A stretch of 64,000 nucleotides of DNA from a virus: positions 1 through 64,000 of the IMG/VR virus record IMGVR_UViG_3300021963_000109; one strand, written 5' to 3'. Below, piece after piece: positions 1 through 22,656 of the stretch. The notes under the pieces were generated by a model that was not told the origin of the DNA, searched no databases, and worked only from the letters and a program-made list of their open reading frames with translations. Positions within the stretch are counted from its first letter, which is position 1, and each line of letters opens with the position of its first letter. A program made the position numbers and the translations under genes.

Positions 1-396
1 CAGAAGTACCAGAAGTACCAGCAGCACCAGATTGTCCAGATGTTCCGGAAGTACCAGAGGTTCCGTCTAAACCAGAAGTACCAGAAGTACCAGCAGCACC
101 AGATTGTCCAGATGTTCCGGAAGTACCAGAGGTTCCGTCTAAACCAGAAGTACCAGAAGTACCAGCAGCACCAGATTGTCCAGATGTTCCGGAAGTACCA
201 GAGGTTCCGTCTAAACCAGAAGTACCAGAAGTACCAGCAGCACCAGATTGTCCAGATGTTCCGGAAGTACCTGGTTCTCCATCCTGTCCAGAAGTACCAG
301 CAGCACCAGATTGCCCAGATGTTCCAGAAGTACCAGCAGCACCAGATTGCCCAGATGTTCCAGAAGTACCAGCAGCACCAGATTGTCCAGATGTTC
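1..396 (-). repeat. Nested 72-nt and 36-nt tandem repeats in the collagen-like gene
   Basis: Near-identical 72-base units occupy 1-72, 73-144 and 145-216. A fourth (217-288) diverges in its last third. Three 36-base units follow at 289-324, 325-360 and 361-396, each matching the shared part of the longer unit. All units are multiples of 9 bases, so they preserve the Gly-X-Y frame; the 72-base unit encodes eight triplets. The array may continue beyond the window start. Such identity between neighbours points to recent slippage or unequal recombination. Confidence 0.92.
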
Positions 397-1033
397 CAGA
401 AGTACCGGATCCTCCACTAGTTCCACCTGAAATTGTAACAGTAACTATGCCTCCTCCAGAATCGGTCACAACCGCTCCTGAAAATTGAATTTCAGAAGGA
501 CCGGAAACAGAAGTTGTTCCATCAGAAACAGTAACTATAGACGAAGTCCCAGAGGTTCCTGAACTACCAGAAGTTCCAGATTCGCCAGATGTTCCGGATT
601 CACCAGAAGTACCTGAAGTACCAGGAGCGCCATCAGATCCAGCTACACCAGGAGATCCAGTGGGTCCAGCTTCACCTGTGGCTCCAGTTGCACCGGTAGG
701 ACCAACCTCACCATTTAAGCCATTAGATCCTGTTGCACCGGTTGCACCGGTTGCACCTGTTGACCCGGTTACCCCTGTAGATCCAGTAGCTCCGGTTGCA
801 CCGGTTGCACCGGTTGCACCTGTTGCCCCGTCAGATCCGGGTTCGCCGTCGGCACCAGTCGCACCAGTCGGACCAACAATTCCCTGAGGTCCAGTAGGTC
901 CGGTTACTCCCCCACCTAATGGATCTTCAAGAAGATTAAATGCACTATCAATTAAATCCTCAAAATCTTGTTGGGTTGGAATATCTCCTGTTTGAAATCG
1001 GATCTTGAGTTCCGGTCTGGTTCTTTGTGCCAA
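1..1033 (-). CDS. Collagen-like tail fibre protein (3' end outside window)
   Basis: Minus-strand frame open to the window edge, giving about 344 residues. No ATG is available: an in-frame stop lies two codons upstream of a TTG at 1031-1033, and the product then starts (M)[15 protein letters not shown], a typical phage fibre N-terminus. Residues to about 40 form the N-terminal head ([12 protein letters not shown]). Gly-X-Y triplets follow, rich in GATGAT and GPTGPT. A short non-collagen segment (around 415-540, with alternating V/T/S strands) interrupts them, and [13 protein letters not shown] repeats run to the edge. Such proteins are known to form trimeric fibres at virion tips or on the capsid. 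A GATATATA motif upstream and a terminator behind the preceding gene suggest independent transcription. The missing C-terminus would hold any receptor-binding domain. Confidence 0.85.
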
Positions 1034-1056
1034 CTCTTAACGCTTTTATTCTTACC

Positions 1057-1064
1057 TATATATC
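1057..1064 (-). promoter_or_regulatory. GATATATA motif upstream of the collagen-like gene
   Basis: Reads GATATATAGG on the minus strand and ends 23 bases before the TTG start. It matches the recurrent motif found before many genes here and lies just after a terminator, as expected for a promoter. Function is inferred from recurrence and position. Confidence 0.5.
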
Positions 1065-1096
1065 ATCTTTGCTAAAGATTCAATAGAATTGTCCAC

Positions 1097-1122
1097 AAAA
1101 AAAGAAGATTGTGAAATCTTCC
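1097..1122 (-). terminator. Rho-independent terminator after the NTP pyrophosphatase gene
   Basis: On the minus strand GAAGATT-tcac-AATCTTC (1104-1121) forms a 7-bp stem with a 4-base loop, followed by seven T (1103-1097). It lies 26 bases past the stop at 1148 and separates this unit from the collagen-like gene. Confidence 0.75.
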
Positions 1123-1147
1123 TTTTTAAAAACGAAAAAACACGAAT

Positions 1148-1627
1148 TTAATATCCACGTTTCTGTCTTTCCCTATTCTCTTTGTTCTTTGCAAAATACA
1201 TATTCATTAGATCTTGTGGGGTTAAACCCGCTGCTAACATCATATTAAATAAGAAATGCTGAATATCAATTAATTCCATTTGTAATTCCTTCTTATCATT
1301 CTCACTAAGATCATTAAAACTCATTTTAGGAGCTTGTTCATGATAGGATTTTTTCCAAGGCTTCCAGACACCATTTCCTATACCGTCTTTAATTCCACCC
1401 AATGCATCAAATGTTTCCCTTAATTCGTCCTGGATTGCATGGTAGTTCCAATCAAAAAATTGGCGGAATTCACTTAAAGACTTACCTCTAAGTTCGTCGA
1501 AGTTATAACCATATACAGTTTCCTGAATGTCCTTCTGTAAATTATATAAATCAGAAAGAGTATTATCTGAATTACTGAAAACATCTTCTACCTCGAGATG
1601 TGCACATGAATTATCTACGTTTGCCAT
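1148..1627 (-). CDS. All-alpha NTP pyrophosphatase (dUTPase-2/MazG-like)
   Basis: 159 residues, ATG start. The C-terminal half carries the helical metal-site signature of the dimeric dUTPase/MazG superfamily: an acidic helix with E and D spaced as in ELQMELIDIQHFL, then GLTP and a terminal YFAKNKENRERQKRGY. The K-N-x-x-N-x-x-R-Q-x-x-GY ending is typical of dUTPase_2-type proteins. These enzymes hydrolyse dUTP or related dNTPs to the monophosphate, and phages use them to keep uracil out of DNA or to bias nucleotide pools. It follows the polymerase half-gene by 49 bases and precedes a terminator, so it probably ends that transcript. The exact substrate cannot be read from sequence; dUTP, dCTP and dATP are all possible. 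Confidence 0.75.
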   Translation of the reverse strand: MANVDNSCAHLEVEDVFSNSDNTLSDLYNLQKDIQETVYGYNFDELRGKSLSEFRQFFDWNYHAIQDELRETFDALGGIKDGIGNGVWKPWKKSYHEQAPKMSFNDLSENDKKELQMELIDIQHFLFNMMLAAGLTPQDLMNMYFAKNKENRERQKRGY

Positions 1628-1676
1628 TTATTTGTGATTTACATAGATTATATTCAATGGCGGGAAGTTGTTTCAG

Positions 1677-3089
1677 TTATTTTCTAGATTTTAGAATTTC
1701 CTCTAATTCTGTTATCTTAGTTTCATATTCAATATATTTCTTCTTAGCGGATTTTCTCATGTCATATAGACTTTTAAGAACGTCTCTTAAAACTGGCTCT
1801 TCCCCTTCCTTGGGTAAAAAATAAGCTCCTCCTGCAGTTTTAATAGCACCTTCAGGAGGATTTGACAAATTTTTCCCAATATAGATCTCAGGAGATAAAC
1901 CCCATTGCATCATGGTATTGGGATACAGGGAGGCAAAGTCAAAACAAACTACCCATTCATGTAATCCTTTAATCGGTTGCTTCACATAAGCCCCTTCGAA
2001 TTTCGTGTGTTCTTCTTCGGATCTTTCCCAAACAATAACCCTGTTTTTAGCCTGGAATTTTCTTAACATCAAAACCTCTGTCGTCCAAACAGGAGAAAGA
2101 GCTCTGTTAATCTCTACACCACTTACGTTTGCGATTTTAAAGAACGTAGCAAGCGTATTTAGTTTCTGGTCAATGTAATGTACTAGACAAGAGTCAATGG
2201 CGTTATAAAAGATGTAGGTCTCAAAATCTGATTCATATAAATCTTTTAATGTTCCGTTGTATGTGATCTTAGAAACACCAAGTGCTGCATTAGAAACATA
2301 TGCTAATGAATCAGATTCTCTGATTTTAATTACTCTGTCCCATTTCTTGTAGATCTGAATGTAATCGACCATAAGTCCATGCATGGGAATTTGATCCTTT
2401 CCAAGAAGAATCCCACTCGGGGAACAAATCTTAGGATCAATACCTAATTTCCTAGCCCGATTAGTTAAATAAGGCCAGTCATATCCAAACCAGTTCCAGC
2501 CAGTAATTAAAGGCATCTTATGCATGAGTTTTGTCATGAAAGTATAAATCATATCAAACTCACTTTCAAAAGATCTATAATTGAAAGTCCATTGAGTATC
2601 ATAAGGAAGATCCTTAAAATGATCGTTAATTCTTTTTTCAATGTTTAGAATTTTTGGTGAATCCATTTTATCTAAACCAAGAACGAGAATTTTCCCAGTT
2701 GATGAGGCAATTGCAATTGTCAAAACTTTATTGTTAGCACGTAAGGTGTCTAATGAATCTGCACGATTGTCGGTGATCTCAACCTCGATGTCGACAAAAT
2801 ATTTTTTAGGCACTTGGGTTTCCCACAGAGGTTTAGTGGTTTCCTTATCAAAGTATTCCAGGAGTTCTGCTAATCTGTATTTGTCATACTTCAATGTGGA
2901 TTGCTTCTTAACAGGAAATCCGTCCCAAGAACCCCAGCCTTTTTCTCGACTGCGATCTGCTGCAGAGCACTTACGCCAAACATATCTTTCGGAAACCGGA
3001 ATTTTGAGATCTAAATAAGCTAGATCTCCTTCCCCTGTATAATAGGAAACCTTTAAACTTTCCCCTAAATTTTCAACATCGATTATCAT
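1677..3089 (-). CDS. Family B DNA polymerase, N-terminal half (split gp43-like)
   Basis: 470 residues, ATG start; T4 gp43 is about 900. The 3'-5' exonuclease is complete: Exo I FVDIEVEI (98-105, D100 and E102), Exo II NWFGYDWPYL (199-208, D204), Exo III YNAIDSCLV (295-303, D299). The palm begins with EGAYVKQPIKG (365-375) and motif A DFASLYPN (384-391). The frame ends after a charged helix (440-470) that would be the first helix of the fingers. Motif B (K...NSxYG) and motif C (DTD) are absent here and from every other frame in the window. Only 49 bases separate the stop from the next gene, so no frameshifted remainder exists locally. The best reading is a split polymerase whose C-terminal subunit is encoded elsewhere, as reported for some Aeromonas T4-like phages; a dead remnant is less likely because all exonuclease residues are intact. 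Confidence 0.88.
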   Translation of the reverse strand: MIIDVENLGESLKVSYYTGEGDLAYLDLKIPVSERYVWRKCSAADRSREKGWGSWDGFPVKKQSTLKYDKYRLAELLEYFDKETTKPLWETQVPKKYFVDIEVEITDNRADSLDTLRANNKVLTIAIASSTGKILVLGLDKMDSPKILNIEKRINDHFKDLPYDTQWTFNYRSFESEFDMIYTFMTKLMHKMPLITGWNWFGYDWPYLTNRARKLGIDPKICSPSGILLGKDQIPMHGLMVDYIQIYKKWDRVIKIRESDSLAYVSNAALGVSKITYNGTLKDLYESDFETYIFYNAIDSCLVHYIDQKLNTLATFFKIANVSGVEINRALSPVWTTEVLMLRKFQAKNRVIVWERSEEEHTKFEGAYVKQPIKGLHEWVVCFDFASLYPNTMMQWGLSPEIYIGKNLSNPPEGAIKTAGGAYFLPKEGEEPVLRDVLKSLYDMRKSAKKKYIEYETKITELEEILKSRK

Positions 3090-3130
3090 AGTAAGTATTA
3101 TATAAAGTTAAAGATGGGTTAGTTTCACCA

Positions 3131-3138
3131 GATATATA
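3131..3138 (+). promoter_or_regulatory. GATATATA motif before the plus-strand gene
   Basis: GATATATAAA on the plus strand, with six bases between the octamer and the ATG at 3145. It is the same motif as on the minus strand but turned with its gene, which argues that orientation matters. If it were a -10-like element the transcript would be nearly leaderless. Confidence 0.45.
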
Positions 3139-3144
3139 AATTGG

Positions 3145-3510
3145 ATGAATAAATTAGATATCAGTGAATTAAAAAACTTGAGTAAAGATGTCATCGAGGC
3201 TTGGAGATTAGAAGGTAAAGATTTAGAAGGAGCAGCTCAAGTTTTATTTTATCCAATTCGGGCAACGGTTGATTCCACAGCACAAAAACCTTCAAAAGAA
3301 GAAATTCAAGAAGCCATTGACAGTTTAACAGATATTCCAAGAATAGCACCATTGATTGTTATTTTTGTTTCTTCTCCTATTCCTGGTAGTTCTATTTTCT
3401 ATCTCTCTATTATTAGGCTTCTAGAAAAAATGACCGGCAATAGAATCAAAATGATTCCCCGTAGATTCAGGAAGATTCTTGAGAGGAAATTTCTTTCAAA
3501 TAAAGATTAA
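3145..3510 (+). CDS. Small membrane protein, weakly LETM1-like
   Basis: 121 residues, one of only two plus-strand genes. An N-terminal charged helical region is followed by a hydrophobic stretch (about 66-93, IAPLIVIFVSSPIPGSSIFY) and a basic tail ending KMIPRRFRKILERKF. The arrangement R-x-x-P, hydrophobic segment with PxPG, then IPxxF resembles the core of LETM1-like membrane proteins, but this is a weak visual match. Its last 44 bases overlap convergently with the glycosylase gene. Its opposite orientation and own GATATATAAA motif suggest separate transcription. Function unknown; an inner-membrane location is inferred. Confidence 0.6.
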   Translation: MNKLDISELKNLSKDVIEAWRLEGKDLEGAAQVLFYPIRATVDSTAQKPSKEEIQEAIDSLTDIPRIAPLIVIFVSSPIPGSSIFYLSIIRLLEKMTGNRIKMIPRRFRKILERKFLSNKD

Positions 3511-3868
3511 GCTTCTTATCGCAAGCAATAAAATTGGTTTTACCTTCAATAAAAATTTTCCAGGCATCTTTACCATATGGACCGATACCTGGAAAATTAT
3601 TTGGGTTGCGCTCTCCGGAATTCCATACCTGTGTGAATTTTATAATCCGGTTAGCTTTAACATTCTGAAATCCAGTTGGCTTTAATATTTCAGATATCTT
3701 AGTCATGCTTTCTTCATCAATTAAATTTGGGGTGGGAAAATTCTCAAAAAATTTCACAATCACCGGGCGGACTTGCTGATTGGTTGTTTGATTAAGAAGA
3801 ATGCATGAAATCATTATTTTCCAGGCATCTCCTAAATAGTGTGTTTGTATTAAATCGATTTTTCCCAC
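3467..3868 (-). CDS. MBD4-like HhH-GPD DNA glycosylase
   Basis: 133 residues, a compact helix-hairpin-helix glycosylase domain. WKIMISCILLNQTTNQQVRP (16-35) matches the first helices of the endonuclease III/MBD4 fold. The hairpin is FPGIGPYGKDAWKIF (92-106). D117 in ACDKKLNLYL is at the position of the catalytic aspartate of MBD4 (D-x-K-L-N-x-Y). There are no four-cysteine iron-sulphur residues, again as in MBD4. That family removes T or U opposite G. The frame starts at a GTG (3866-3868) with no ATG upstream in frame; the next internal Met would cut the first helix. It overlaps the plus-strand gene by 44 bases. It may work with the NTP pyrophosphatase in uracil or thymine control. Confidence 0.72.
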   Translation of the reverse strand: MGKIDLIQTHYLGDAWKIMISCILLNQTTNQQVRPVIVKFFENFPTPNLIDEESMTKISEILKPTGFQNVKANRIIKFTQVWNSGERNPNNFPGIGPYGKDAWKIFIEGKTNFIACDKKLNLYLKEISSQESS

Positions 3869-3886
3869 ATACCAAATATAATGAAA

Positions 3887-4261
3887 TTAATTCAAAGAGA
3901 TCTGACGTTTCTTCTCTTTTGTTTTAGGGTCTAGCTCTTTCAAATAAATGCTTAGAACTCCGTCTTCGATTTTAGCCTCAACAGCATCCAAATCAACGTT
4001 TCGAAGTCTATAATCTTTGATTGTTTTCTTAAGAGTTCTTTTCTTCCCGTTAATCTCTTTCTCACCTTCAATAGATATTAATCCTTCACTTTGATCTATC
4101 TCTAGTGTGATATCCTTTTTAGAAAATCCAGGAACATCTAAAGTTAATGTTCCATTTTCCACGGGAACGAAAGAATCTAAAGCGTTTTCTAGATCTGTAT
4201 AAAGATCAAATACCCTGGTTGGAAATAATGTTCTGATCATAGTTAATAAATTTATATTCAT
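3887..4261 (-). CDS. Small heat-shock protein, Hsp20/alpha-crystallin
   Basis: 124 residues. The alpha-crystallin domain covers roughly 35-115: the start GTLTLDVPGFSKKDITLEI is the canonical opening strand, SIEGEKE follows, and the family A-x-x-x-x-G-V-L signature is present as AKIEDGVLSIYL. The C-terminal tail is short and basic. Hsp20 proteins are ATP-independent holdases; T4-like cyanophages and other large phages carry them, probably to help fold virion proteins. Two starts are possible: the ATG at 4261 and an ATG seven codons on (4240, giving MIRTLFP); the second fits family length equally well. It lies 18 bases upstream of the glycosylase gene, so the two are probably co-transcribed, past a terminator that closes the preceding unit. 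Confidence 0.88.
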   Translation of the reverse strand: MNINLLTMIRTLFPTRVFDLYTDLENALDSFVPVENGTLTLDVPGFSKKDITLEIDQSEGLISIEGEKEINGKKRTLKKTIKDYRLRNVDLDAVEAKIEDGVLSIYLKELDPKTKEKKRQISLN

Positions 4262-4273
4262 TAGCTATAATGC

Positions 4274-4305
4274 AAAAAAAATGCCCTACAATATTTACAG
4301 GACAT
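4274..4305 (-). terminator. Rho-independent terminator after the 153-residue gene
   Basis: Minus strand ATGTCCT (4305-4299) pairs with AGGGCAT (4287-4281), including one G-U pair, across an 11-base AT-rich loop, followed by seven T (4280-4274). It lies about 40 bases past the stop at 4346 and just before the Hsp20 start. Confidence 0.65.
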
Positions 4306-4345
4306 TTTGTCGATAACTCTTTAGTAATCAAGACGTTATGTCATA

Positions 4346-4807
4346 TCATCCTTGGTTCTTAAGCATATTTTTCCTGAACTCATTCCATCCCATAACAGGA
4401 TTGGAAGGATTCTTACTTTTTTTCTTTCTACCTCCCTTAGCAGCAGGGGTGCCGGCTGTTAAAGCGGGAAAAACATCGCCAGATCCAATTGAATCCCTTG
4501 TTGGTGGTTGAACCTCTCCCATCCCCGGGGTTCCTTCTAAACTTGCCATTGCTCCCTCACTTTCGTTAATCTGAGAAACTTTATCTTTGAAAACACGGAA
4601 GGTTCCTCTTTCGTTGTTTAAAACGTATCCTATTACTTCACCCCTTGAATTTCTGATTGAGTCATTAATAGTCCCAGATCTTCCGTCAATTACCGTTGCC
4701 AATTTTCCAACGTTAGGGTCTTGCTGAAATGACGTTTGGGTAACAACTTCAGTCGGATTGCTAGATGCCCCGCATCCACAATCTTCATTAATTTTTTGGT
4801 GTTCCAT
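4346..4807 (-). CDS. Hypothetical protein with targeting-peptide-like N-terminus
   Basis: 153 residues from the ATG at 4807; a TTG one codon upstream is also open but unnecessary. The protein begins MEHQKINEDCGCGASS, in which I-N-E at 6-8 fits the (L/I)-x-E cleavage consensus of the T4 prohead protease. Residues 30-80 look folded (VGKLATVIDGRSGTINDSI, then EVIGYVLNNERGTFRVF). The C-terminal third is low-complexity, with Gly/Pro and a KGGRKKKSK basic patch, ending with a helix. No family recognised. It overlaps the upstream gene by 20 bases and is followed by a terminator. Packaging in the head as a DNA-associated internal protein is a guess based on the N-terminus and the basic patch. Confidence 0.7.
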   Translation of the reverse strand: MEHQKINEDCGCGASSNPTEVVTQTSFQQDPNVGKLATVIDGRSGTINDSIRNSRGEVIGYVLNNERGTFRVFKDKVSQINESEGAMASLEGTPGMGEVQPPTRDSIGSGDVFPALTAGTPAAKGGRKKKSKNPSNPVMGWNEFRKNMLKNQG

Positions 4808-5165
4808 CAAGGTCTTTTTTATTCTTCTTTTTGATGTGCTCTCTATAGTCGGAAAGGTTCGCTAGCGATCTTTCCCCTGATCTTGCATCATCATATTGAG
4901 CATCAGGCGATAGCTTATAGTATATGTCCTTTAGAACGCCTTCTTTTACCTCTTCGGGTAAATTCTTATGTTTGGTCTCAGCAAACTCTTTTAGCTTAGC
5001 TAAGGACACGCTATTAGCTAAATCCATTATTTCTTTCTTGTACTTAGGGTTGATGTCTTTGGGATTTATTCCCTTCTCCCCGTGGGAGCGTTTCCACATC
5101 TTTACTCCGTAAGCTTGTCCAAATAATCTTTGCTGAGTTCTAGAAAGGGATTTCTCGTTGATCAT
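4788..5165 (-). CDS. Hypothetical small basic protein (DUF3008-like?)
   Basis: 125 residues, ATG start. The N-terminus contains SLSRTQQRLFGQAYGVKMWK, and helices follow with KYKKEIMDLANSVSLAKLKEFAETKHKNLPEEV. The SxxQQRLFG...A opening followed by a lysine-rich helix and KxFAxTKHxxLPE is a pattern I associate with short phage structural or DUF3008-type proteins; the match is tentative. The C-terminus is strongly basic (HIKKKNKKDLDG). The gene overlaps the next by 20 bases, so translation is probably coupled. It starts MINEKSL, another M/I-N-E at the extreme N-terminus, but too short for a targeting peptide. Confidence 0.65.
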   Translation of the reverse strand: MINEKSLSRTQQRLFGQAYGVKMWKRSHGEKGINPKDINPKYKKEIMDLANSVSLAKLKEFAETKHKNLPEEVKEGVLKDIYYKLSPDAQYDDARSGERSLANLSDYREHIKKKNKKDLDGTPKN

Positions 5166-5182
5166 GGTAAGTTTTAATAATA

Positions 5183-5380
5183 CTATTTATCCTTACCTGA
5201 ATTCTTTTTCTTCGAATGCTGATCCAGTGTCCAAATAAATCTCCTGTAGTTTTTCTTAACCATTTTAAATCCAGTATCATTATCTGGAATTTTAACAGGA
5301 CTATCAGGAACCTCATAGTTATGTGTTTCTGCACTTCCTTCTTGGATTTGATCTTCTACAGGAGATTTAGGGTTTTTCAT
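5183..5380 (-). CDS. Hypothetical 65-residue protein
   Basis: ATG start two bases after the stop of the DUF4494-like gene and 17 bases before the next start, so it fits the operon tightly. Acidic, disordered first half (SPVEDQIQEGSAETHNYEV), basic second half (KMVKKNYRRFIWTLDQHSKKK). It was preferred to a 64-codon frame at 5140-5334 because of start position and spacing. No family recognised. Confidence 0.6.
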   Translation of the reverse strand: MKNPKSPVEDQIQEGSAETHNYEVPDSPVKIPDNDTGFKMVKKNYRRFIWTLDQHSKKKNSGKDK

Positions 5381-5382
5381 TT

Positions 5383-5601
5383 TTACTTTGTTTTTTCTTG
5401 CAACACCGATTCGATGTTAGACAATGAAACCGAGGTCACCTCAAAATCCATGATATCGGATTTTAAGTGCTCAGTGATCCTAGCTTCAGCTTCTGTTACT
5501 CCAGTAGCCTCTACTAACATCACAGTTTTAGTGATCATTGGTTTTCCTTGCTTGTTTGTTTCACCGGAATCAAACGTTACTTTACATTGATAATAAGCCA
5601 T
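5383..5601 (-). CDS. DUF4494-like small protein
   Basis: 72 residues, ATG start. MAYYQCKVTFDSGETNKQGK begins with a beta-strand pair, followed by ITKTVMLVEATGVTEAEARI and DFEVTSVSLSNIESVL. A Y-x-C/V-K-V start, a V-x-A-x-(S/G)-x-TEAEARI segment and an FEVTxxxxSNxxEI end match DUF4494, which I know mainly from Bacteroidetes genomes. Function is unknown. It is the first gene of a short operon preceded by GATATATA (5614-5621) and a terminator, giving a clear transcription start. Homology to a host-phylum family supports the host assignment. Confidence 0.7.
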   Translation of the reverse strand: MAYYQCKVTFDSGETNKQGKPMITKTVMLVEATGVTEAEARITEHLKSDIMDFEVTSVSLSNIESVLQEKTK

Positions 5602-5613
5602 AATTTATTGTTT

Positions 5614-5621
5614 TATATATC
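5614..5621 (-). promoter_or_regulatory. GATATATA motif upstream of the DUF4494-like gene
   Basis: Minus strand CGATATATAAAAC, ending 12 bases before the ATG at 5601 and lying about 50 bases past a strong terminator. An operon start is therefore independently expected here. Confidence 0.5.
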
Positions 5622-5674
5622 GATTAAAGTTGAAATTTGGTCAGTTGTTTCAAATTATCCATAGGCAAGGGCCA

Positions 5675-5698
5675 CAAAAAACCAGCCCGAAGGCTGGT
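5675..5698 (-). terminator. Strong rho-independent terminator after the histone H1-like gene
   Basis: Minus strand ACCAGCC-TTCG-GGCTGGT (5698-5681): a perfect 7-bp stem capped by the stable TTCG tetraloop, followed by six T (5680-5675). It lies 16 bases past the stop at 5715. Confidence 0.93.
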
Positions 5699-5714
5699 AT
5701 TTGTAAATTTCTTG

Positions 5715-5897
5715 TTATTCAGCAGTCTGCTTCTTAGCATTCTGAACATCCAAACGAAGTTCTTGTGCAAGCTTTTTAATCTCTTGGCATTGAGTTCTCA
5801 CTCTAGTGCCTGCTGATTTGTTGCCTTTGTCAAAAAACTTTTCTACGTTCTCTTTCATTGACTCTAGGAGTGCAACTAATTTTTCATAATTTTCCAT
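5715..5897 (-). CDS. Histone H1-like (Hc1-type) nucleoid protein
   Basis: 60 residues, ATG start. The pattern MENYEKLVALLESMKENVEKFF, then DKGNKSAGTRVRTQCQEIKK, then LAQELRLDVQNAKK closely follows the short Hc1/histone H1-like proteins I know from Bacteroidetes (F-x-(E/D)-KGNKxAGTRVR...Q(D/E)IKxLAQxIRxEV). Those proteins bind DNA without strong sequence preference. The central GNK-AGTRVR segment is the most conserved part. In a phage it could compact viral DNA, be packaged, or interfere with the host nucleoid. It sits between the winged-helix-like gene (16 bases upstream) and a strong terminator. Family assignment rests on visual pattern only but is fairly specific. Confidence 0.78.
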   Translation of the reverse strand: MENYEKLVALLESMKENVEKFFDKGNKSAGTRVRTQCQEIKKLAQELRLDVQNAKKQTAE

Positions 5898-5913
5898 AAA
5901 AAAACTTTATTTA

Positions 5914-6240
5914 TTATATTGTTTGGTTACCCTTTGTTTCACTCAAAATTAAGGATTTTGCGAATCTTTTTCCCAATTTTGTTAAAGAATATTGATTTGG
6001 GCCCTCTTCTGAGACCAAACACTTGATGAGGGGCTTGTTTCTAGCAATCCATCTACGGTCTACTACTGCTCCTGATTCCCCTAAGGTAGCAGCAAATTCA
6101 AAGATCTCTTTTCTGGTAGCTTGCCCCTTTTCGTGAAGGAACTTAACAATGGAATTTTTCAGCTGATTTTTAACACTCATGTACATCACCGGTGTTAAAG
6201 ACTCGTTGATAAACTCATTATATTTTAAAAGATTATCCAT
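5914..6240 (-). CDS. Hypothetical winged-helix-like protein with targeting-like N-terminus
   Basis: 108 residues, ATG start. It begins MDNLLKYNEFINESLTPVM, in which the F-I-N-E at 10-13 resembles the end of the T4 internal-protein targeting peptide. The rest has the predicted pattern of a winged helix: NSIVKFLHEKGQATRKEIFE, a recognition-helix-like segment with RRWIARNKPLIKCLV, and a wing EEGPNQYSLTKLGKRFA. A DNA-binding regulator or a packaged DNA-binding protein are both possible. It overlaps the upstream gene by 8 bases and lies 16 bases before the histone-like gene, so all three genes probably share a transcript. Confidence 0.65.
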   Translation of the reverse strand: MDNLLKYNEFINESLTPVMYMSVKNQLKNSIVKFLHEKGQATRKEIFEFAATLGESGAVVDRRWIARNKPLIKCLVSEEGPNQYSLTKLGKRFAKSLILSETKGNQTI

Positions 6241-6772
6241 GAGCAGTTTTGGTGTAAATTAGGCATTTGGAGGAAGATCCTGGTTGAATACTCCATCTTC
6301 CTTCGGACCAAGCAGAAACAATAGGTTTAATAAATTCTGTGTATTCTTCTATTCCCATTTCTAAGTTTTCCAAAACCTCATCGTAGATTTTAGTTACCTT
6401 AGGGTTCTTTTCTAAATAGTTATCTAAAGCTCTTTTGTAAATTTCAAAAGCCTGATTTAAAAGATCTTTAGGTAAAGCAAATTTTTCACCCTCTCTAGAT
6501 CTATACTCACTATCATTTACTAAGTAATCATCTAAATCATTAGCATCCATTTGTTCAATATGGACAACGCCATAAGATTTTTCAGTCTCCGAAATAACGG
6601 TGGATTCTGAAAATTTACCAATCTTGAAAATTAAACCAGTTTCAGATTCAGCTTCTCCCACTTTGAAATAATAACATTGGGTTTTTTCCTCTTTTTTATC
6701 AACAAAGTAATCGTTGCCGTATCCAGCTTCCTCGTTCATTGTATAACTTGGGAAATTCTTAATAAATTTCAT
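6233..6772 (-). CDS. Hypothetical protein with targeting-peptide-like N-terminus
   Basis: 179 residues, ATG start. It begins MKFIKNFPSYTMNEEAGYG: a short basic/aromatic leader ending M-N-E|E-A, similar to the N-termini of the MoxR ATPase and the 108-residue protein. A mixed alpha/beta region follows (YYFKVGEAESETGLIFKIG, VVHIEQMDANDLDDYL), then long helices (LLNQAFEIYKRALDNYLEK) and a final SAWSEGRWSIQPGSSSKCL strand pair. No known family. It begins a transcript: a GAATATATAAA element lies 18 bases upstream and a terminator lies beyond it. Confidence 0.65.
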   Translation of the reverse strand: MKFIKNFPSYTMNEEAGYGNDYFVDKKEEKTQCYYFKVGEAESETGLIFKIGKFSESTVISETEKSYGVVHIEQMDANDLDDYLVNDSEYRSREGEKFALPKDLLNQAFEIYKRALDNYLEKNPKVTKIYDEVLENLEMGIEEYTEFIKPIVSAWSEGRWSIQPGSSSKCLIYTKTAHG

Positions 6773-6790
6773 GTCTTGATCTTTTTACTT

Positions 6791-6799
6791 TATATATTC
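6791..6799 (-). promoter_or_regulatory. GAATATATA variant of the recurrent upstream motif
   Basis: Minus strand GAATATATAAAG, ending 18 bases before the ATG at 6772. It is identical over 11 bases (GAATATATAAA) to the element before the gene at 63804. It lies directly downstream of a terminator. Confidence 0.4.
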
Positions 6800-6821
6800 A
6801 AAAAATAAATCCTAGGCTCAC

Positions 6822-6851
6822 AAAAAACCCCTGATTTAAATCAGGGGTTTT
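6822..6851 (-). terminator. Rho-independent terminator after the MoxR-like ATPase gene
   Basis: CCCCTGATTTAAATCAGGGG (6828-6847) is a perfect 10-bp inverted repeat, preceded by AAAA and followed by six T on the minus strand (6827-6822). It begins four bases past the stop at 6855. The flanking A and T runs could let it act in both directions. Confidence 0.93.
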
Positions 6852-6854
6852 AAT

Positions 6855-8507
6855 TTATTTTGCTGCATTAATGTTTTGCTGTCTAAATTCTTCAAAGTCT
6901 ACTAAATAAGCCTGAGCGAATTTAGTTAGATTTCTTAAATAAGGCTTAGCCTCTGGACCAGTCTTAACATAATCATGTTTAGAGTTTAGCATGTTTATAA
7001 ATGCTGTAGCATACTCAGAAGCAAGATCTCCTAATGTTTCTTTAAGTCTAATACTCCAATCAACAGCGTTACCGTATTGCTCTGGAGTTAGTTTACCAAG
7101 ATCTCCTGATTTAGAAACTACCGCTGCCAACTTAGCCCAAATGTGATTTGGAGAATCTCCAGATTTTGGAATTGGTGCTTTGTCAGGATCACTAAATACT
7201 TTATCAACGTCAGCAGGAGGGAAATTCTTCACGATTTGATAGAATTCCATAAATGCTCTAGCTGCGGTTTGACCAACTGAAGCAGCGAAGATGTCAAAAA
7301 CTTCGTCTGCAGAAATTTCTTTCTTTCCAGTTTCTGCTTGAATTACTTTTAATTCAGAATATAGGGATTTAGATGCATCGATCCAACCTCTAGGAGTAGC
7401 GAATTTACGTCCGGATTGAACATTACCTGGATCAAGCGTGTGGAAATATTCTCTTGAGAATTGTAGGAAAGCAAGAAGCTCTGGTAATACAATTTCTCTT
7501 AATGGAGCACCTGCACCCCCGCTTGGAGCATAATCATAGGAAGATAATTTCTTGCCCTGAGGATCTACCCCAGTAACGTGTGAAACGAATCCTTCGATAG
7601 TTGGAATATAGTTAACAGCATCCACACGATCCCAGAAAGCTGTAGGCATTTCTTTAACCGCTTCCTCCACATCATCTGAGGGTCTGTTACCCGCTGCAAC
7701 GATTAACCATTTTCCTGGTAATTCGTATTCCATAACTCTTCTGCTTTGAAATAATTTCATACAACCAGTTACTACCGGTTGAATTGCTCTGTTCATTTCA
7801 TCGAAGAAGATAATTCCTCCTCTGTCTTTATATTTTTTTCCGTCATTGGTTCTAGGAAGCCAAACCGGAGGATTACCTCTGGTAACCCCTTCACCGTAAG
7901 CTTTATCTGATGCAACGTCTACAGTTTTTGGTACACCCAAAAAGTCTGCAGCTTCCATAAATTCTAGATCCACATATAAAACGTCCAAACCTAAATCTTC
8001 CGCCGCTTGAGCAACAATTTCAGTTTTTCCGATACCAGGAGATCCAAAGATAAAGATAGGTTTGCTGTAACCAGTAACTTCTCTTTCATCTTCTCCTTGC
8101 TTAACCTTAGTTGTATAATTTAAAGTTTTATATCTCTTTTTGATCATTTCCTTTAACTTCTCTGCACCTACATCAGTTGGACCTTCTTCACCTGGCCATG
8201 CAAGATGCGGAGAAATCTCTCCTTCATCTAAATCAACAGATTCTTTAAGTTTTGAATATTTACTACCGGAAAAGAAAGTGTCTAATTGACTTAGCATATT
8301 GCCATCTCCGTAAGCAAAATATCCAACCATTGGTAATCCTTCTTTCTTTCCCTGAGGATTAATAGGAACTAAGCCATCCTTGATTTTCGAAATCAGGGAA
8401 GAAACCCATCCTCCAACTTTAGAAAAAATGTTTTTGGCACCTTTTACAAGATCTCCAAACCCATAATCTTCATTGATGAAAGTGTTAAAATTTTTAATCT
8501 TCTGCAT
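6855..8507 (-). CDS. MoxR-family AAA+ ATPase with targeting-like N-terminus
   Basis: 550 residues, ATG start. AAA+ core: Walker A GSPGIGKT (155-162), Walker B GIIFFDE (231-237), sensor 1 AAGN (271-274) and FWDRVD (291-296) with a candidate arginine finger. This is the MoxR/CobS-type layout. MoxR ATPases remodel partner proteins together with VWA-domain proteins, and the next gene upstream encodes such a VWA protein. The first 20 residues, MQKIKNFNTFINEDYGFGDL, resemble a T4 capsid-targeting peptide (F-I-N-E). An amphipathic stretch (about 22-44) and a roughly 100-residue domain precede the ATPase. The C-terminal 250 residues are helical. It is preceded by GATATATA and followed by a strong terminator. 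T4-like cyanophages carry CobS-annotated ATPases of this type. The substrate is unknown. Confidence 0.88.
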   Translation of the reverse strand: MQKIKNFNTFINEDYGFGDLVKGAKNIFSKVGGWVSSLISKIKDGLVPINPQGKKEGLPMVGYFAYGDGNMLSQLDTFFSGSKYSKLKESVDLDEGEISPHLAWPGEEGPTDVGAEKLKEMIKKRYKTLNYTTKVKQGEDEREVTGYSKPIFIFGSPGIGKTEIVAQAAEDLGLDVLYVDLEFMEAADFLGVPKTVDVASDKAYGEGVTRGNPPVWLPRTNDGKKYKDRGGIIFFDEMNRAIQPVVTGCMKLFQSRRVMEYELPGKWLIVAAGNRPSDDVEEAVKEMPTAFWDRVDAVNYIPTIEGFVSHVTGVDPQGKKLSSYDYAPSGGAGAPLREIVLPELLAFLQFSREYFHTLDPGNVQSGRKFATPRGWIDASKSLYSELKVIQAETGKKEISADEVFDIFAASVGQTAARAFMEFYQIVKNFPPADVDKVFSDPDKAPIPKSGDSPNHIWAKLAAVVSKSGDLGKLTPEQYGNAVDWSIRLKETLGDLASEYATAFINMLNSKHDYVKTGPEAKPYLRNLTKFAQAYLVDFEEFRQQNINAAK

Positions 8508-8533: not shown

Positions 8534-9442
8534 TTAAACTTTAGTAACCAAATCAAGCTTAGTGCCAAAAGGAACCTGTATATCGTTATTTGGTCTGTTC
8601 GGAGAAATTATCACCCAGAAAACATTTTTTGCATATTTATCTGTTCCATAATCACCTAAAGCAGGGAATGGTCCGAATCCATCAGTAAAATAAACGATAG
8701 GTCCTATTTTCTTCTTACCGAGAATATTCTCCTCTATCCATTTGAAAGGAGGTCTGAAATCTGTTCCTCCACCGCCTCTAGGTTCTCTCATTTTCCAAAG
8801 ATCCCCTGTTCCTTTTAAAACGTCAACGGGTAAATACATGGTTGCATCGCACCAAATAAGATATGTTTCTTTGGGCTTGTGTTCCTTCATGATATTTTGG
8901 GTCTCATTAATGAATTGCTGTAATTCATTTTTTCCAATAGATCCTGAGGTATCCGCTATAATAAAGAGGGTTTCGAATCCTTCCTTTTTTCTTTTAGATC
9001 CCCAAAGAATATCTCCACTGCCTAAAAATCTTTTATTAGGCATAAAGTATTCAACCTTAGAAGCCATCTTATTGACAAATCTCTTTAATAAGATTTTCCA
9101 ATCAATCACTGGCTTAGCGAACATATCCTCCAGAATAGTTACAAGGGCTCCTGGGATACTACCAGCATTTCTTTGTCTTGCCCTTTGAACATCTTCTCTC
9201 CAAGCTTCTTCTCCATCTTTTTTTGAATCAGTGATCTCGGGTGGAAGAGGCTCTCCCCCAGGAACGGGTATTCCCTCCGGACCCTCGCCTTCACCTCTCC
9301 CTATACGAGGTGGCTCGTCCCAAGCGGGTTCAGTCCCAGGAGGGGGAGGTGGAACCGGTCCTGTTGGAGGAGGTGGTGGGTTAGTACCATTATCCTCGAA
9401 ATCTACTACGACCTTTCTTAGATCTGCTGCTTTATATTTCAT
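8534..9442 (-). CDS. VWA-like (DUF2201-type) protein with proline-rich N-terminus
   Basis: 302 residues, ATG start. A proline/glycine-rich, probably disordered region covers 20-70 (runs of five prolines). The VWA-like domain spans about 155-300: metal-ion-dependent adhesion site DTSGS (164-168), GGGGTDFRP (223-231, T227 and D228) and FTDGFGPFP (252-260, D254). This pattern is that of the VWA half of DUF2201 proteins, which in bacteria are usually fused to an N-terminal metallopeptidase-like domain. Here that domain is the separate gene two bases upstream, so the two products probably associate. The MoxR ATPase is the next gene downstream. VWA proteins act as adaptors that present substrates to MoxR ATPases. 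The proline-rich linker could bind partners or tether the protein. Confidence 0.82.
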   Translation of the reverse strand: MKYKAADLRKVVVDFEDNGTNPPPPPTGPVPPPPPGTEPAWDEPPRIGRGEGEGPEGIPVPGGEPLPPEITDSKKDGEEAWREDVQRARQRNAGSIPGALVTILEDMFAKPVIDWKILLKRFVNKMASKVEYFMPNKRFLGSGDILWGSKRKKEGFETLFIIADTSGSIGKNELQQFINETQNIMKEHKPKETYLIWCDATMYLPVDVLKGTGDLWKMREPRGGGGTDFRPPFKWIEENILGKKKIGPIVYFTDGFGPFPALGDYGTDKYAKNVFWVIISPNRPNNDIQVPFGTKLDLVTKV

Positions 9443-12664: not shown

Positions 12665-12928
12665 TTATTTTTTACCAAAAGGCTTTGAACTCTTCGTTAC
12701 AATCCCGTGTTTTTCTTTATAATCAGACCATTCTTTTCCTAGATCCTCCATGAATTTTTCTTGGGCTTTTTTATCCTCTCTGAACTTTTCATCAAATGGA
12801 CCGGAAACTCCATGCTTCTTATAATACTTTTTTGCAAAAGTTAAATATTTATTAGTCTCATCAATTTTTGAAATAGTCTTTAGTTTTTCAATCTTGATGC
12901 TCTCTTGGATCTGTGATACCTTTTTCAT
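12665..12928 (-). CDS. Small lysine-rich protein with targeting-like N-terminus
   Basis: 87 residues, ATG start. It begins MKKVSQIQESIKIEKLKTIS, in which I-Q-E|S at 7-10 fits the (L/I)-x-E consensus. The body is highly charged (KYYKKHGVSGPFDEKFREDK, then KEWSDYKEKHGIVTKSSKPF) and ends GKK. It lies upstream of the 141-residue gene with a four-base gap. Small basic proteins with such leaders are typical of internal head proteins in T4-like phages, but no homology is visible. Confidence 0.6.
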   Translation of the reverse strand: MKKVSQIQESIKIEKLKTISKIDETNKYLTFAKKYYKKHGVSGPFDEKFREDKKAQEKFMEDLGKEWSDYKEKHGIVTKSSKPFGKK

Positions 12929-12957
12929 TTATATCTATTATATTATGATTTTATTTT

Positions 12958-13611
12958 TTAATTCCCCATCGGGATATTTGCTGGATTTATCCCAGTAGAA
13001 ACTGGTGTTTCTGCTGTGATTGCGGGAGCTGCTGGTAAAACCCCTCTTTTGCTATTTAAATATGTATTAGCAATAGTTGCTGCCCCTGTGTCAACCTCTT
13101 TGTTTATTCCGGGTTTAACTCCTGCGTGTTTATAGTAATCCCAAACATATTCTTTAAAATCATCATCGCTTTTGATCTTAGGAAGATCGTTCTTCATAAA
13201 AGAATCATTCATTAATCTTTGATGTTCAGTCTTGATTGTCATGTCGCTAGCAGAGGTTCCGGCCCCGGAGGTTGCTGGATCTTTCTTAATCACCTTTCCC
13301 CAGCCAGCAGGTTTAAATATCTTGGAAGCCACGTTAGCAGCAAGGGATCCCGCTGTTCCTATCAGCCACCCCATTCCAGTATCGATTGGTCTGCCGTTAA
13401 TATCCTTAACCGCAATATTTTGCTGGTAATAGGTGTCAAATCTTTCGAATCTATCCTCTAGATTTTTAAACGTGTTATAAAGCCAATCCTTCCATCCAGG
13501 TGCGGTATTTGACCCAGAAACACTGGTATAGTCAGAATCAGTATAGCTATCAAAAAATCTATTGGGATTCTTCTTGGCCTCAAAAATCTTAAAGGAATCT
13601 ATATGTTTCAT
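12958..13611 (-). CDS. Hypothetical protein with targeting-peptide-like N-terminus
   Basis: 217 residues, ATG start nine bases past a GATATATA motif. It begins MKHIDSFKIFEAKKNPNRFF: a basic/aromatic leader with I-F-E|A at 9-12, the closest match here to the T4 cleavage site form (I-x-E|A). The middle contains a Gly/Ala-rich hydrophobic segment (GMGWLIGTAGSLAANVASKI, about 78-98) that could insert in a membrane. Aromatic helices follow (FKEYVWDYYKHAGVKPGI) and the tail is Pro/Ala-rich. No family recognised. It heads the run of genes leading to the fusion enzyme. Confidence 0.65.
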   Translation of the reverse strand: MKHIDSFKIFEAKKNPNRFFDSYTDSDYTSVSGSNTAPGWKDWLYNTFKNLEDRFERFDTYYQQNIAVKDINGRPIDTGMGWLIGTAGSLAANVASKIFKPAGWGKVIKKDPATSGAGTSASDMTIKTEHQRLMNDSFMKNDLPKIKSDDDFKEYVWDYYKHAGVKPGINKEVDTGAATIANTYLNSKRGVLPAAPAITAETPVSTGINPANIPMGN

Positions 13612-13620
13612 TTTTATTTT

Positions 13621-13628
13621 TATATATC
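13621..13628 (-). promoter_or_regulatory. GATATATA motif upstream of the 217-residue gene
   Basis: Minus strand AGGATATATAAAAATAAAA running directly into the ATG at 13611, with nine bases between. It lies in the 37-base gap after uvsW. The leader would be very short if this is a -10-like element. Confidence 0.42.
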
Positions 13629-13648
13629 CTAACCGGGAGGGGGAACCT

Positions 13649-15175
13649 TTATAAAGTCACATCGTAGATTTTATACTCGAATTTTTCCCTCTTGTAGATC
13701 TCTATTCTTTCGGCGGAATGCTTCAGCAGATAGTTAGCAGATCCATTCCAGGAAAAATCGTCAACAAAATCGATCACATTGACTTTTTCTTTTCCTTCGT
13801 ACAATCTCATTCCCCTTCCAAGGCTTTGCTTGATAAGAACCTCAGATTTGTATGATTCAGTTAGAAATAGATTGTGGATATTTTTAACCGACACACCGGT
13901 ACTTAGTGTACCAAAGCTGGCAACTAAAATCTTATTGGTTCCCTCTTCTAGTTTGGTCTTGAAAAAATCTCTTTGACTAGGATCAGTGTCACCGTCCACG
14001 TAGTAGATTTCTTTTTCAGATTGGATCTCTCTTAATAAATCATAGATTCTTTTTCCGTATCCCTCCCCGACAGACTGGAAAAGGACCAGAGAGTTTTTAC
14101 TGGTCTTAGAGATGAAATCAACAATATAGTTTAATCTTTTATCAGAGGAAATTACCAGCTTTCTTTCCACATTGAAAATCTCATTTCCGTCTAGATCTTG
14201 TTTATTAGTTCTTAGTTGATATAGCTTTTCTTTATAATCCTCCTGGAGCCAATTCATTTTAACCACCTTAATCGAAACAGGGGTAGCGTACTTGTTATCA
14301 AACAGGAACTTAGGACTGATCTCCATGGTCAAAGGACCAAGATATTGCTGGATAGTTAGATGCTCAGCAGTATTTCTATTAGTAAGGGTTCCAGAAAGTC
14401 CAAATCGATATCTAGAGTCTTTACATTTAGAAATAACCTCTTTAATTGACTTAGAATGACTCTGATGTGATTCGTCAACAAAGATAGCTTCAACCCCATC
14501 AAAAAAAGAATCATCTTGTTTAACCAGAGATTGATATGTCCCAATCATTAGACCAGATGAAATCTTGTTCTTATTTCCCCCATGAATTAATTGAATGTCA
14601 CAATTTTCAACTTCTTTTAGACCATATTCCTCAAAATCTTCTGCTCCTTGAATAATCAGAGTTGTATTAGGAACAATCATTAGAAATTTATTAATGTCCT
14701 TTACTTTCTTTAAGTACGAAAGAACGATAAAAGCTATTAGGGTTTTACCGGAAGAGGTTGCAATTTCTAAACAGGAATATCTGAACTTAACAATCTTCCA
14801 TGCTGCTTCTATTTGATAGTCTCTAGGACTGAATTTTTTATCTTTGAAAAAATCATTACACCATTCGGTAAAATCTTCTAAACTTAGTTCATTTTCTATA
14901 ATATACTCTAGACCTAAGATCTCTACGTCTATTTTATATTTCTCACAAATATCAAAAACTTCACTCCATAGACCCACCGGAATTTTCCACAATGGACCTC
15001 TTTTATCAACAAAACAAATAGCTCCATCCCAGTGCTTCTTTTTAACTAGAGGATGGAAAAAATAGTTATGGATTTTTCTAGTGAGCGAAATCTCCAGCTG
15101 TTTACGATCTACCTCTTCGTCATAATCTTGAAGAATCAGCCATTGTAAATCCTCCGATACAATAAATTTTAGCAT
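13649..15175 (-). CDS. uvsW: UvsW-like SF2 helicase
   Basis: 508 residues, ATG start (T4 UvsW is near 500). The N-terminal double-stranded-DNA-binding region is 1-105. Helicase motifs: Q-like PRDYQIEAAW (117-126), Walker A ATSSGKT (139-145), motif II VDESH (233-237), motif III LSGTL (260-264), motif V-like FGTLSTGVS and motif VI QSLGRGMRL. T4 UvsW unwinds R-loops and D-loops, regresses forks and shifts replication from origin-dependent to recombination-dependent initiation. The UvsY-like gene lies immediately upstream (7 bases), as the uvsW/uvsY neighbourhood in T4 would predict. All motifs appear intact. Confidence 0.93.
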   Translation of the reverse strand: MLKFIVSEDLQWLILQDYDEEVDRKQLEISLTRKIHNYFFHPLVKKKHWDGAICFVDKRGPLWKIPVGLWSEVFDICEKYKIDVEILGLEYIIENELSLEDFTEWCNDFFKDKKFSPRDYQIEAAWKIVKFRYSCLEIATSSGKTLIAFIVLSYLKKVKDINKFLMIVPNTTLIIQGAEDFEEYGLKEVENCDIQLIHGGNKNKISSGLMIGTYQSLVKQDDSFFDGVEAIFVDESHQSHSKSIKEVISKCKDSRYRFGLSGTLTNRNTAEHLTIQQYLGPLTMEISPKFLFDNKYATPVSIKVVKMNWLQEDYKEKLYQLRTNKQDLDGNEIFNVERKLVISSDKRLNYIVDFISKTSKNSLVLFQSVGEGYGKRIYDLLREIQSEKEIYYVDGDTDPSQRDFFKTKLEEGTNKILVASFGTLSTGVSVKNIHNLFLTESYKSEVLIKQSLGRGMRLYEGKEKVNVIDFVDDFSWNGSANYLLKHSAERIEIYKREKFEYKIYDVTL

Positions 15176-15182
15176 CCATAAA

Positions 15183-15629
15183 TTATTTTATTACCTCTCC
15201 CCTCATAAACGATTCTAATGCAATTCTGGATTTAACTCCATATAGCATATGATCTACTGTTTGAATCGTTTCTTTCACAAAACTTATATGATTGTCAACT
15301 ATGTCAATTTTTTTCTTTTGTTCGTTTAAGTCGCCTTCGATGAGAGCAGTTTTTTCATTGGCTCCATATCTAACATTATGTTCCTCTGAATAATACACCA
15401 TCTTATTTCTTCTTTCAGTTTTATACTTGGAATTTTGTCTTGCTATAACTTGTCCTAATTTATAGTTATATTCTAGCAATCTTTGGCGATCTGAATAAAG
15501 CTCAACCTGAACTTCACCGATCTCTCTAATATTTTTCATTCGAATGGAAAGTTCTCTAATTCTTTCTGTCCATTCAGTCCTTTCCCTAGTAAACAGATCT
15601 TCGTAATTTTCTTGATTTTGATCACTCAT
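15183..15629 (-). CDS. uvsY: UvsY-like recombination mediator
   Basis: 148 residues, ATG start (T4 UvsY is 137). The protein is almost entirely helical. The pattern KYKTERRNKMVYYSEEHNVR (80s to about 100), then EKT..IEGD and a helix ending VKSRIALESFMRGE, parallels UvsY: K-x-R-x-x-YYxG, EKTxLxGD, and a final IKxRxxxIxxxxxFxAG. UvsY loads UvsX recombinase onto gp32-coated single strands. The setting supports the call: uvsW lies 7 bases downstream, and primase and gp32 lie upstream. The similarity is at pattern level only, so a profile search should decide; no other family fits as well. It overlaps the 73-residue gene by 8 bases. Confidence 0.65.
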   Translation of the reverse strand: MSDQNQENYEDLFTRERTEWTERIRELSIRMKNIREIGEVQVELYSDRQRLLEYNYKLGQVIARQNSKYKTERRNKMVYYSEEHNVRYGANEKTALIEGDLNEQKKKIDIVDNHISFVKETIQTVDHMLYGVKSRIALESFMRGEVIK

Positions 15630-15843
15630 ATAACGAATTGCTTTTATTCTTTTTCTTTTTCAAATCAACGACAGTTGGTTTAACCTTCTCTTTTCTCTTT
15701 ATCTTTTCGGGTTTAAAATTGTTTTCCAAATCTGGAAATTCTAAAGCATCGTCAACCTTGTATGATATATGACCCTTTAATAGGGATTTCTTTTTATCCA
15801 GAGCTTCTATCTCTTCCTTTGTTAAACTAAAATCGTGTCCCAT
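15622..15843 (-). CDS. Small lysine-rich hypothetical protein
   Basis: 73 residues, ATG start. It overlaps the primase by 22 bases and the UvsY-like gene by 8, so translation is coupled through all three. A first helix (SLTKEEIEALDKKKSLLKGH) is followed by an acidic segment and a strongly basic tail (PEKIKRKEKVKPTVVDLKKK). It could be a replication accessory factor judging by its place between primase and recombination mediator. No family recognised. Confidence 0.6.
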   Translation of the reverse strand: MGHDFSLTKEEIEALDKKKSLLKGHISYKVDDALEFPDLENNFKPEKIKRKEKVKPTVVDLKKKKNKSNSLYE

Positions 15844-16874: not shown

Positions 16875-16895
16875 ACGATCTCATCTTTTTTGATA

Positions 16896-17855: not shown

Positions 17856-17911
17856 GTTTTTTCAAGTTTTATTTAAATGTTTAAAATTATCCTAATTTAT
17901 ACCTAAGTGTT

Positions 17912-19124: not shown

Positions 19125-19130
19125 GTAGTA

Positions 19131-21458: not shown

Positions 21459-21465
21459 ATGTCAT

Positions 21466-21473
21466 TATATATC
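21466..21473 (-). promoter_or_regulatory. GATATATA motif upstream of the 775-residue structural gene
   Basis: Minus strand TTGATATATAATGACAT, ending seven bases before the ATG at 21458. It lies in a 98-base gap, which marks a likely transcription start. The same gap holds a weak 6-bp hairpin (21496-21516). Confidence 0.42.
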
Positions 21474-22324: not shown

Positions 22325-22357
22325 AACTCTTTTTTTATTATTGCTTCTTCATTTTAA

Positions 22358-22645: not shown

Positions 22646-22656
22646 AGCCTATTATA

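What the first reader, a model, noticed from the sequence alone, without database searches (positions are those of the whole stretch)
1677..3089. DNA polymerase split between motif A and motif B
The gene encodes an intact exonuclease and palm motif A but ends within the fingers; motifs B and C are absent from the whole window, and only 49 bases precede the next gene. Split gp43 genes with a break in the fingers are known in some Aeromonas T4-like phages. Here the second half must lie far away, so the two polypeptides would have to find each other, or the exonuclease half works alone.
Basis: partly seen in the sequence, partly recalled or inferred. Interest (0 to 1): 0.66.

Follow-up and report, generated by a model that had tools for sequence, protein, structure and literature searches.

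The report
Two-piece DNA polymerase of giant phages
This gene is the front half of a viral DNA-copying enzyme that a whole lineage of giant, probably Bacteroidota-infecting phages makes from two separate genes, usually 13-24 thousand bases apart; the back half is missing here only because the assembled fragment stops too early.

Summary
Window 1677-3089(-) encodes 470 aa of a T4-type family B DNA polymerase: exonuclease, palm motif A and the first fingers helix, then a stop. Motifs B and C are absent from the whole 68,223-b record. This is neither an assembly error nor a remnant. All 79 of 80 IMG/VR relatives whose 3' end is held (53-91% identity) stop at the same place, and the gene is under strong purifying selection. 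In 43 contigs that hold both halves, a separate 382-410-aa gene with KLTxNSIYG and DTDS lies 12.9-23.9 kb downstream on the same strand. In the window that position falls left of base 1, where the record begins inside a tandem repeat. The same split occurs in Lak phages, LR7565xx megaphages, PAU, MA9V-1 and pT24. Large relatives show no second family B polymerase, Pol A or Pol III alpha. The catalytic aspartates and four fingers residues are shared out between the two chains, so an obligate heterodimer is most likely. One single-chain relative (L178) is nested inside the split clade, which suggests re-fusion. Fingers-tip splits are known from Aeromonas phages. New here are the lineage-wide conservation, the distance and the re-fusion.

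The parts
1677..3089 (-). N-terminal half of a split T4-type family B DNA polymerase (470 aa)
   Evidence: (phrog_2062, E 3e-69)
2784..2792 (-). Exo I motif, D100-I-E102
   Evidence: invariant in 81 sequences; T4 D112/E114
2478..2480 (-). Exo II catalytic D204
   Evidence: T4 D219
2193..2207 (-). Exo III motif Y295-D299
   Evidence: T4 Y320/D324
1920..1940 (-). Palm motif A DFASLYP (catalytic D384)
1683..1793 (-). First fingers helix, the last element of the protein; carries the dNTP-site residues R445 and K449 (codons 1743-1757). The break follows at the fingers tip
   Evidence: helix in the AlphaFold2 model; alignment to T4 about residue 504
1628..1676 (.). 49-base gap between the half gene and the next gene; no intron or RNA family found
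1148..1627 (-). dUTPase-like gene directly 3' of the N half; neighbour in 78 of 80 relatives and in phage PAU
1..406 (-). 72-b tandem repeat (5.8 copies, 90% alike) at the very end of the record; the likely reason the contig stops before the C-half gene

Best explanation
The gene is the N-terminal subunit (exonuclease, palm motif A, first fingers helix) of a constitutively two-subunit, T4-gp43-like replicative polymerase. The C-terminal subunit (second fingers helix with motif B, palm motif C, thumb) is a separate gene about 13-24 kb downstream on the same strand, beyond the left end of this record. The two chains are made apart and assemble without covalent joining. The two fingers helices pack as the usual antiparallel pair, the palm sheet is completed between the chains, and each chain brings one catalytic aspartate and two of the four conserved fingers dNTP-site residues, so neither half can polymerise alone. 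Shown: the gene, its conservation and constraint, the location of the C half in relatives, the residue distribution, and a fused natural homologue. Inferred: that this phage has the C half, that the halves assemble, and that the product is the replicase.
For: Same stop position in all 79 relatives with a held 3' end. C-half ORFs in relatives with KLTxNSIYG and DTDS, 43 of 43 on the same strand, gap 12,871-23,887 b, median 17,871. Catalytic and fingers residues invariant in 80-81 N halves; K...N and DTDS in 79 of 79 C halves. dN/dS about 0.04-0.05. Only the two PF00136 halves, and no intact family B gene, in relatives of 319-434 kb; no PF00476 or PF07733 match over the cut-off in ten records checked. 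One relative, L178, encodes both halves as one 889-aa chain; its predicted structure matches RB69 gp43 over its length (TM 0.78), with two antiparallel fingers helices and a lower-confidence linker where the others are split. The motif A strand is below pLDDT 50 in the N half alone but confident in the fused homologue. The split gp43 of Aeromonas phage 25 co-purifies and is active (review PMC2988022).
Against: The C half of this very phage is not held: the record ends 1.7 kb past the stop, and no contig of a near relative (84-91%) reaches far enough. There is no biochemical or complex-structure evidence for this lineage. The two AlphaFold runs used different alignments, so the motif A contrast is suggestive only. 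Absence of other polymerases was tested for two Pfam families in ten records, none shown to be complete.
Confidence: 0.9

Rival explanations
1. The N half works alone as a free 3'-5' exonuclease (a proofreading or processing subunit of another polymerase).
For: The exonuclease domain is present and folds with high predicted confidence by itself. PhiKZ-type jumbo phages encode a separate exonuclease (PMC7824862).
Against: Motif A and fingers residues R445/K449, useless to a bare exonuclease, are invariant in 80 sequences. The matching C half is found in the large contigs that reach it. No Pol A or Pol III alpha over the cut-off in ten records.
Confidence: 0.04
2. Remnant: a decaying polymerase gene beside an intact replacement elsewhere in the genome.
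For: The N half alone lacks half of the polymerase active site.
Against: Strong purifying selection; identical end in 79 relatives; a family B search of relatives up to 434 kb finds only the two halves.
Confidence: 0.02
3. Assembly error or contig-end deletion made a whole gene look split.
For: The record is a metagenomic fragment that ends in a tandem repeat 1.7 kb away.
Against: Independent assemblies and isolate genomes (PAU, MA9V-1, pT24) show the same break, with a dUTPase-like gene next in 78 of 80 relatives and in PAU.
Confidence: 0.01
4. The halves are rejoined covalently by a split intein or by trans-spliced RNA.
For: Pseudomonas phage MIJ3 has a PolB split by an intein (PMC6892783); relatives of this phage carry split inteins, but at motif C.
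Against: The N half ends about 25 residues after R445 with no intein sequence; C halves begin 28-56 residues before motif B with no intein remnant; no RNA family found by Rfam in 1-8000; 13-24 kb lie between the halves.
Confidence: 0.03

Closest known systems
Split gp43 (43/43B) of Aeromonas phages 44RR2.8t and 25 (Petrov, Ratnayaka & Karam 2010, through PMC2988022)
   Same: T4-type family B polymerase broken at the fingers tip, N half 498 aa and C half 391 aa in 44RR. In phage 25 the halves co-purify and are active.
   Different: There the halves are neighbours with a short insert or a seg homing endonuclease. On the N-half tree 44RR groups with T4, so its split is independent. Here the halves are far apart and the split marks a whole lineage.
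Annotated but undiscussed halves in PAU (gp105/gp110), MA9V-1 (ORF135/ORF138) and pT24 (gp165/gp168); PHROGs phrog_2062 and phrog_1918
   Same: Same split lineage and break; both halves are labelled DNA polymerase in the records, and N and C halves have their own PHROG families.
   Different: Halves only 1-2.5 kb apart. The held MA9V-1 and pT24 papers do not use the word split.
'Moraphages', large aquatic phages (PMC12619734)
   Same: Core list includes two families both called DNA-directed DNA polymerase and a dUTPase; heat shock proteins present, hosts placed in Bacteroidota.
   Different: That the two families are the two halves is my inference; their genomes were not compared here.
Split Pol III alpha of group 2.2 jumbo phages (PMC7824862)
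   Same: A jumbo-phage polymerase encoded by two distant genes, in a group that includes Lak-B8 and PTm1.
   Different: A different polymerase family. The passages read treat family B as one enzyme.
Split PolB of Methanothermobacter (Kelman 1999, cited in PMC3984812) and intein-split PolB of phage MIJ3 (PMC6892783)
   Same: Family B polymerase made as two polypeptides.
   Different: The first is archaeal and its break position was not compared here; MIJ3 uses an intein with an adjacent HNH gene, absent at this break.

Membership tests
T4-type family B DNA polymerase (gp43), N-terminal half | 3'-5' exonuclease motifs I-III with catalytic acidic residues | tested here: met
   D100, E102, D204, D299 invariant in 81 sequences; align to T4 D112, E114, D219, D324
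T4-type family B DNA polymerase (gp43), N-terminal half | Palm motif A (DxxSLYP) | tested here: met
   DFASLYP, D384 in all 80 comparable sequences
T4-type family B DNA polymerase (gp43), N-terminal half | Overall fold of RB69/T4 gp43 | tested here: met
   phmmer 1clq E 2e-28; Foldseek of the N-half model 2dtu E 1e-22, TMq 0.70
Two-gene family B polymerase | Motifs B and C on a second gene of the same genome | tested here: inconclusive
   Seen in the 43 relatives' contigs that hold both halves; absent from this record, which ends before the expected place
Aeromonas-type split gp43 | Break at the fingers tip | tested here: met
   N half ends near T4 residue 504; C halves begin near T4 520-530, as in 44RR
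Aeromonas-type split gp43 | Halves adjacent, separated by a short spacer or a homing endonuclease | tested here: not met
   13-24 kb apart in IMG/VR relatives; the next gene in the window is dUTPase-like
Aeromonas-type split gp43 | Halves co-purify and have polymerase activity | not testable with these tools
   needs protein; known for phage 25 (PMC2988022)
Intein-split polymerase (MIJ3 type) | Intein N part at the end of the N half, intein C part at the start of the C half | tested here: not met
   no intein domain in the N half and no room for one; C halves of relatives start just before motif B
Pseudogene or remnant | Relaxed selection and variable ends | tested here: not met
   dN/dS about 0.04-0.05; constant end

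The most novel reading that the evidence does not exclude
A jumbo-phage lineage replicates with an anciently and stably heterodimeric family B polymerase. The split is older than the divergence of Lak phages, marine megaphages and the window's clade; the genes have drifted from about 1 kb to hundreds of kb apart; at least one member (L178) has re-fused the halves at the same fingers-tip site. In some members inteins at motif C cut the C half again, so three chains are translated and two are trans-spliced.
Probability: 0.7. Interest if true: 0.62.

Novelty: new variant of a known kind. Interest (0 to 1): 0.5.

Why it matters
A replicative DNA polymerase that builds each active site from two separately encoded chains, kept that way across a large lineage of giant phages, is a natural test of how an essential enzyme tolerates and perhaps exploits being split: separate dosage of proofreading and synthesis, or simply freedom from gene order. 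The fused relative nested among split ones makes gain and loss of a split directly testable. Practically, marker-gene trees and annotations of jumbo phages that use 'DNA polymerase' may be using half an enzyme, or counting the two halves as two polymerases.

Tried and rejected
Assembly error: rejected (79 of 79 relatives and three isolate genomes). Remnant with an intact replacement: rejected. Intein or intron at the break: rejected. Back-translation search with the diverse N-half alignment A1 failed for lack of conserved stretches, so distant N halves were found through their C halves instead. The gene upstream of the C half in some relatives looked clamp-like to me but matched nothing in Pfam, PHROGs or PDB, so it is not claimed. 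Residue numbers printed for alignments A1, A3 and A4 and the N-half model are one too low because the first codon was left out (corrected; one search printed the uncorrected columns). MaF61 (single chain, long branch), MA9V-1 and two near-copies were left out of the careful tree; in the quick tree MaF61's place relative to the split rows is unresolved.

Full report
WHAT IS THERE. The ORF at 1677-3089 on the minus strand encodes 470 aa. Pfam finds the family B exonuclease domain and only positions 16-142 of the 453-position polymerase domain. PHROGs matches it over most of its length with phrog_2062, a 502-position 'DNA polymerase' family, and with the first half of the 856-position phrog_262. 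The closest solved structures by sequence are RB69 gp43, and the AlphaFold2 model of the protein matches RB69 gp43 by fold. The exonuclease residues, motif A, and R445/K449 of the first fingers helix are invariant in all comparable sequences of an 81-row alignment. The protein ends with a single long helix, at about T4 residue 504, the tip of the fingers. The next gene, dUTPase-like, begins 49 bases on.

NO SECOND HALF IN THE RECORD. The window is part of a 68,223-base linear virus record. PF00136 finds only the N half in it and a profile of C halves finds nothing. The record begins at window base 1 inside a 72-b tandem repeat of almost six copies, only 1.7 kb past the stop of the N half. Contigs of the nearest relatives also stop soon after the N half: L002, L004 and L029 within about 2 kb, L003 within about 3.4 kb, L005 about 16.5 kb on.

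THE SPLIT IS REAL AND CONSERVED. Of 80 relatives found in IMG/VR (53-91% identity), 79 have the stop codon at the same place, 465-472 residues for complete genes; the 80th runs into its contig end. dN is 0.057-0.074 and dS about 1.4 (near saturation) against the three closest relatives, a ratio of about 0.04-0.05. A dUTPase-like gene follows the N half in 78 of the 80 and in phage PAU. This removes assembly error and decay as explanations.

WHERE THE SECOND HALF IS. Searching 36 relatives' whole records with PF00136 gave in most of them, besides the N half, a second ORF, mostly 382-397 aa, that matches the rest of the family from about position 126 on. These ORFs carry KLTxNSIYG and DTDS. In 43 contigs that hold both halves the C half is always on the same strand and downstream, 12,871 to 23,887 b after the N half, median 17,871. 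Applied to the window, the C half would lie well left of base 1. Records of 319-434 kb contain only these two family B pieces, so no intact second family B polymerase is seen, and ten records searched (the window's own and nine large relatives) have no Pol A or Pol III alpha match over the curated cut-off.

HOW WIDE THE SPLIT IS. It occurs in LR756500, 501, 502 and 504 (462-735 kb), in Lak phages, in Sphingomonas phage PAU (gp105 and gp110), Chryseobacterium phage MA9V-1 (ORF135 and ORF138) and Tenacibaculum phage pT24 (gp165 and gp168). Spacing varies from 1.2-2.4 kb in pT24, PAU and MA9V-1 to about 13 kb in LR756500, and to over 100 kb on opposite strands in LR756502, LR756504, LR756501 and Lak-A2 (coordinates). 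Flavobacterium phage MaF61 has a single 994-aa enzyme.

ONE SPLIT, ONE RE-FUSION. One IMG/VR relative, L178, encodes both halves in one 889-aa chain, 40% identical to the window's N half. Its own nearest relatives (L234 at 52%, L235 and L237 at 46%) are split. On a careful N-half tree L178 lies inside the split clade beside L234, L229 and Lak-C1, and a tree in which all split rows of this lineage exclude L178 is rejected (AU p 0.0007). One early split plus one re-fusion is the shortest history within the lineage. But Aeromonas phage 44RR and cyanophage ACG-2014f are split too, and each groups with single-chain phages on the tree, so the fingers tip is a place where splits arise repeatedly, and repeated splitting in this lineage is not excluded.

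HOW IT MOST LIKELY WORKS. Family B polymerases need the motif A aspartate (here on the N chain) and the motif C aspartate (C chain) to hold the metal ions, and two fingers helices to grip the dNTP: R and K on the first (N chain), K and N of motif B on the second (C chain). These assignments rest on the alignment to T4 and on established knowledge of RB69 gp43. All are conserved in both halves, so neither half can polymerise alone and both are under selection as parts of one site. In the N-half model the motif A region is below pLDDT 50 (model residues 357-387), whereas in the model of the fused homologue L178 the matching strand is confident and the fingers form two antiparallel helices (441-474 and 499-534) with a less certain linker where the others are cut; that model matches RB69 gp43 over its length. 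The alignments behind the two models differ, so this contrast is only suggestive. I infer non-covalent assembly, as shown for the split gp43 of Aeromonas phage 25, whose halves co-purify and are active (PMC2988022). No intein, intron or homing endonuclease was found at this break.

COMPARISON WITH WHAT IS KNOWN. A fingers-tip split of gp43 is known from Aeromonas phages. The present lineage shares the break but not the adjacency. Papers held on MA9V-1, pT24 and the moraphages list polymerase genes without using the word split, and the passages read in the jumbo-phage survey treat family B as one enzyme. The moraphage core list has two families called DNA-directed DNA polymerase, which I suspect are the two halves (not tested). 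The Jug-phage preprint says DNA polymerase genes there are often split by endonuclease sequences (PMC12363816). The literature searched is open-access only, so an earlier description elsewhere is possible.

VERDICT. The finding is real and correctly read as a split polymerase; the missing half is best explained as a contig-end effect. It is a new variant of a known kind: an old, lineage-wide, two-gene polymerase with the genes far apart and one apparent re-fusion.

Noticed in passing
L184:707-2374, L190:2971-4659, L143:972-3828, L183, L186, L179; L125 and L126 (Lak-A2, LR756500): The C half of some relatives carries an intein at motif C (between DTD and S). In L184 and L190 it is in frame; in L143, L183, L186, L179 and LR756500 the gene is broken by a free-standing endonuclease-like ORF (about 380-570 aa; phrog_22677 or weak MTES_1575 hits) between split-intein halves, so the C subunit itself would need trans-splicing. 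Lak-A2 is also interrupted there.
   Followed up: partly
L212:1085-4101: Cyanophage ACG-2014f (Syn7803US26) also has gp43 split in the fingers (491 and 389 aa) with two small ORFs between; it groups with single-chain HTVC008M, so this looks like an independent split.
   Followed up: partly
window 1-1036, minus strand: Collagen-like repeat coding stretch at the record's end with a 72-b tandem repeat; likely breaks assembly in this phage group.
   Followed up: partly
window 3467-3868(-) and 3887-4261(-): Small HhH-GPD base-excision glycosylase-like gene and an HSP20 chaperone gene just upstream of the polymerase half.
   Followed up: no
L143:212-976, L190:2196-2975: An ORF of about 255 aa directly upstream of the C half in some relatives has no Pfam, PHROG or PDB match; its pattern looks sliding-clamp-like to the eye only.
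   Followed up: partly
window 8534-9442(-): Endonuclease gene (phrog_1314, HNH endonuclease, E 2e-38) 5.4 kb upstream of the N half, not beside the break.
   Followed up: no
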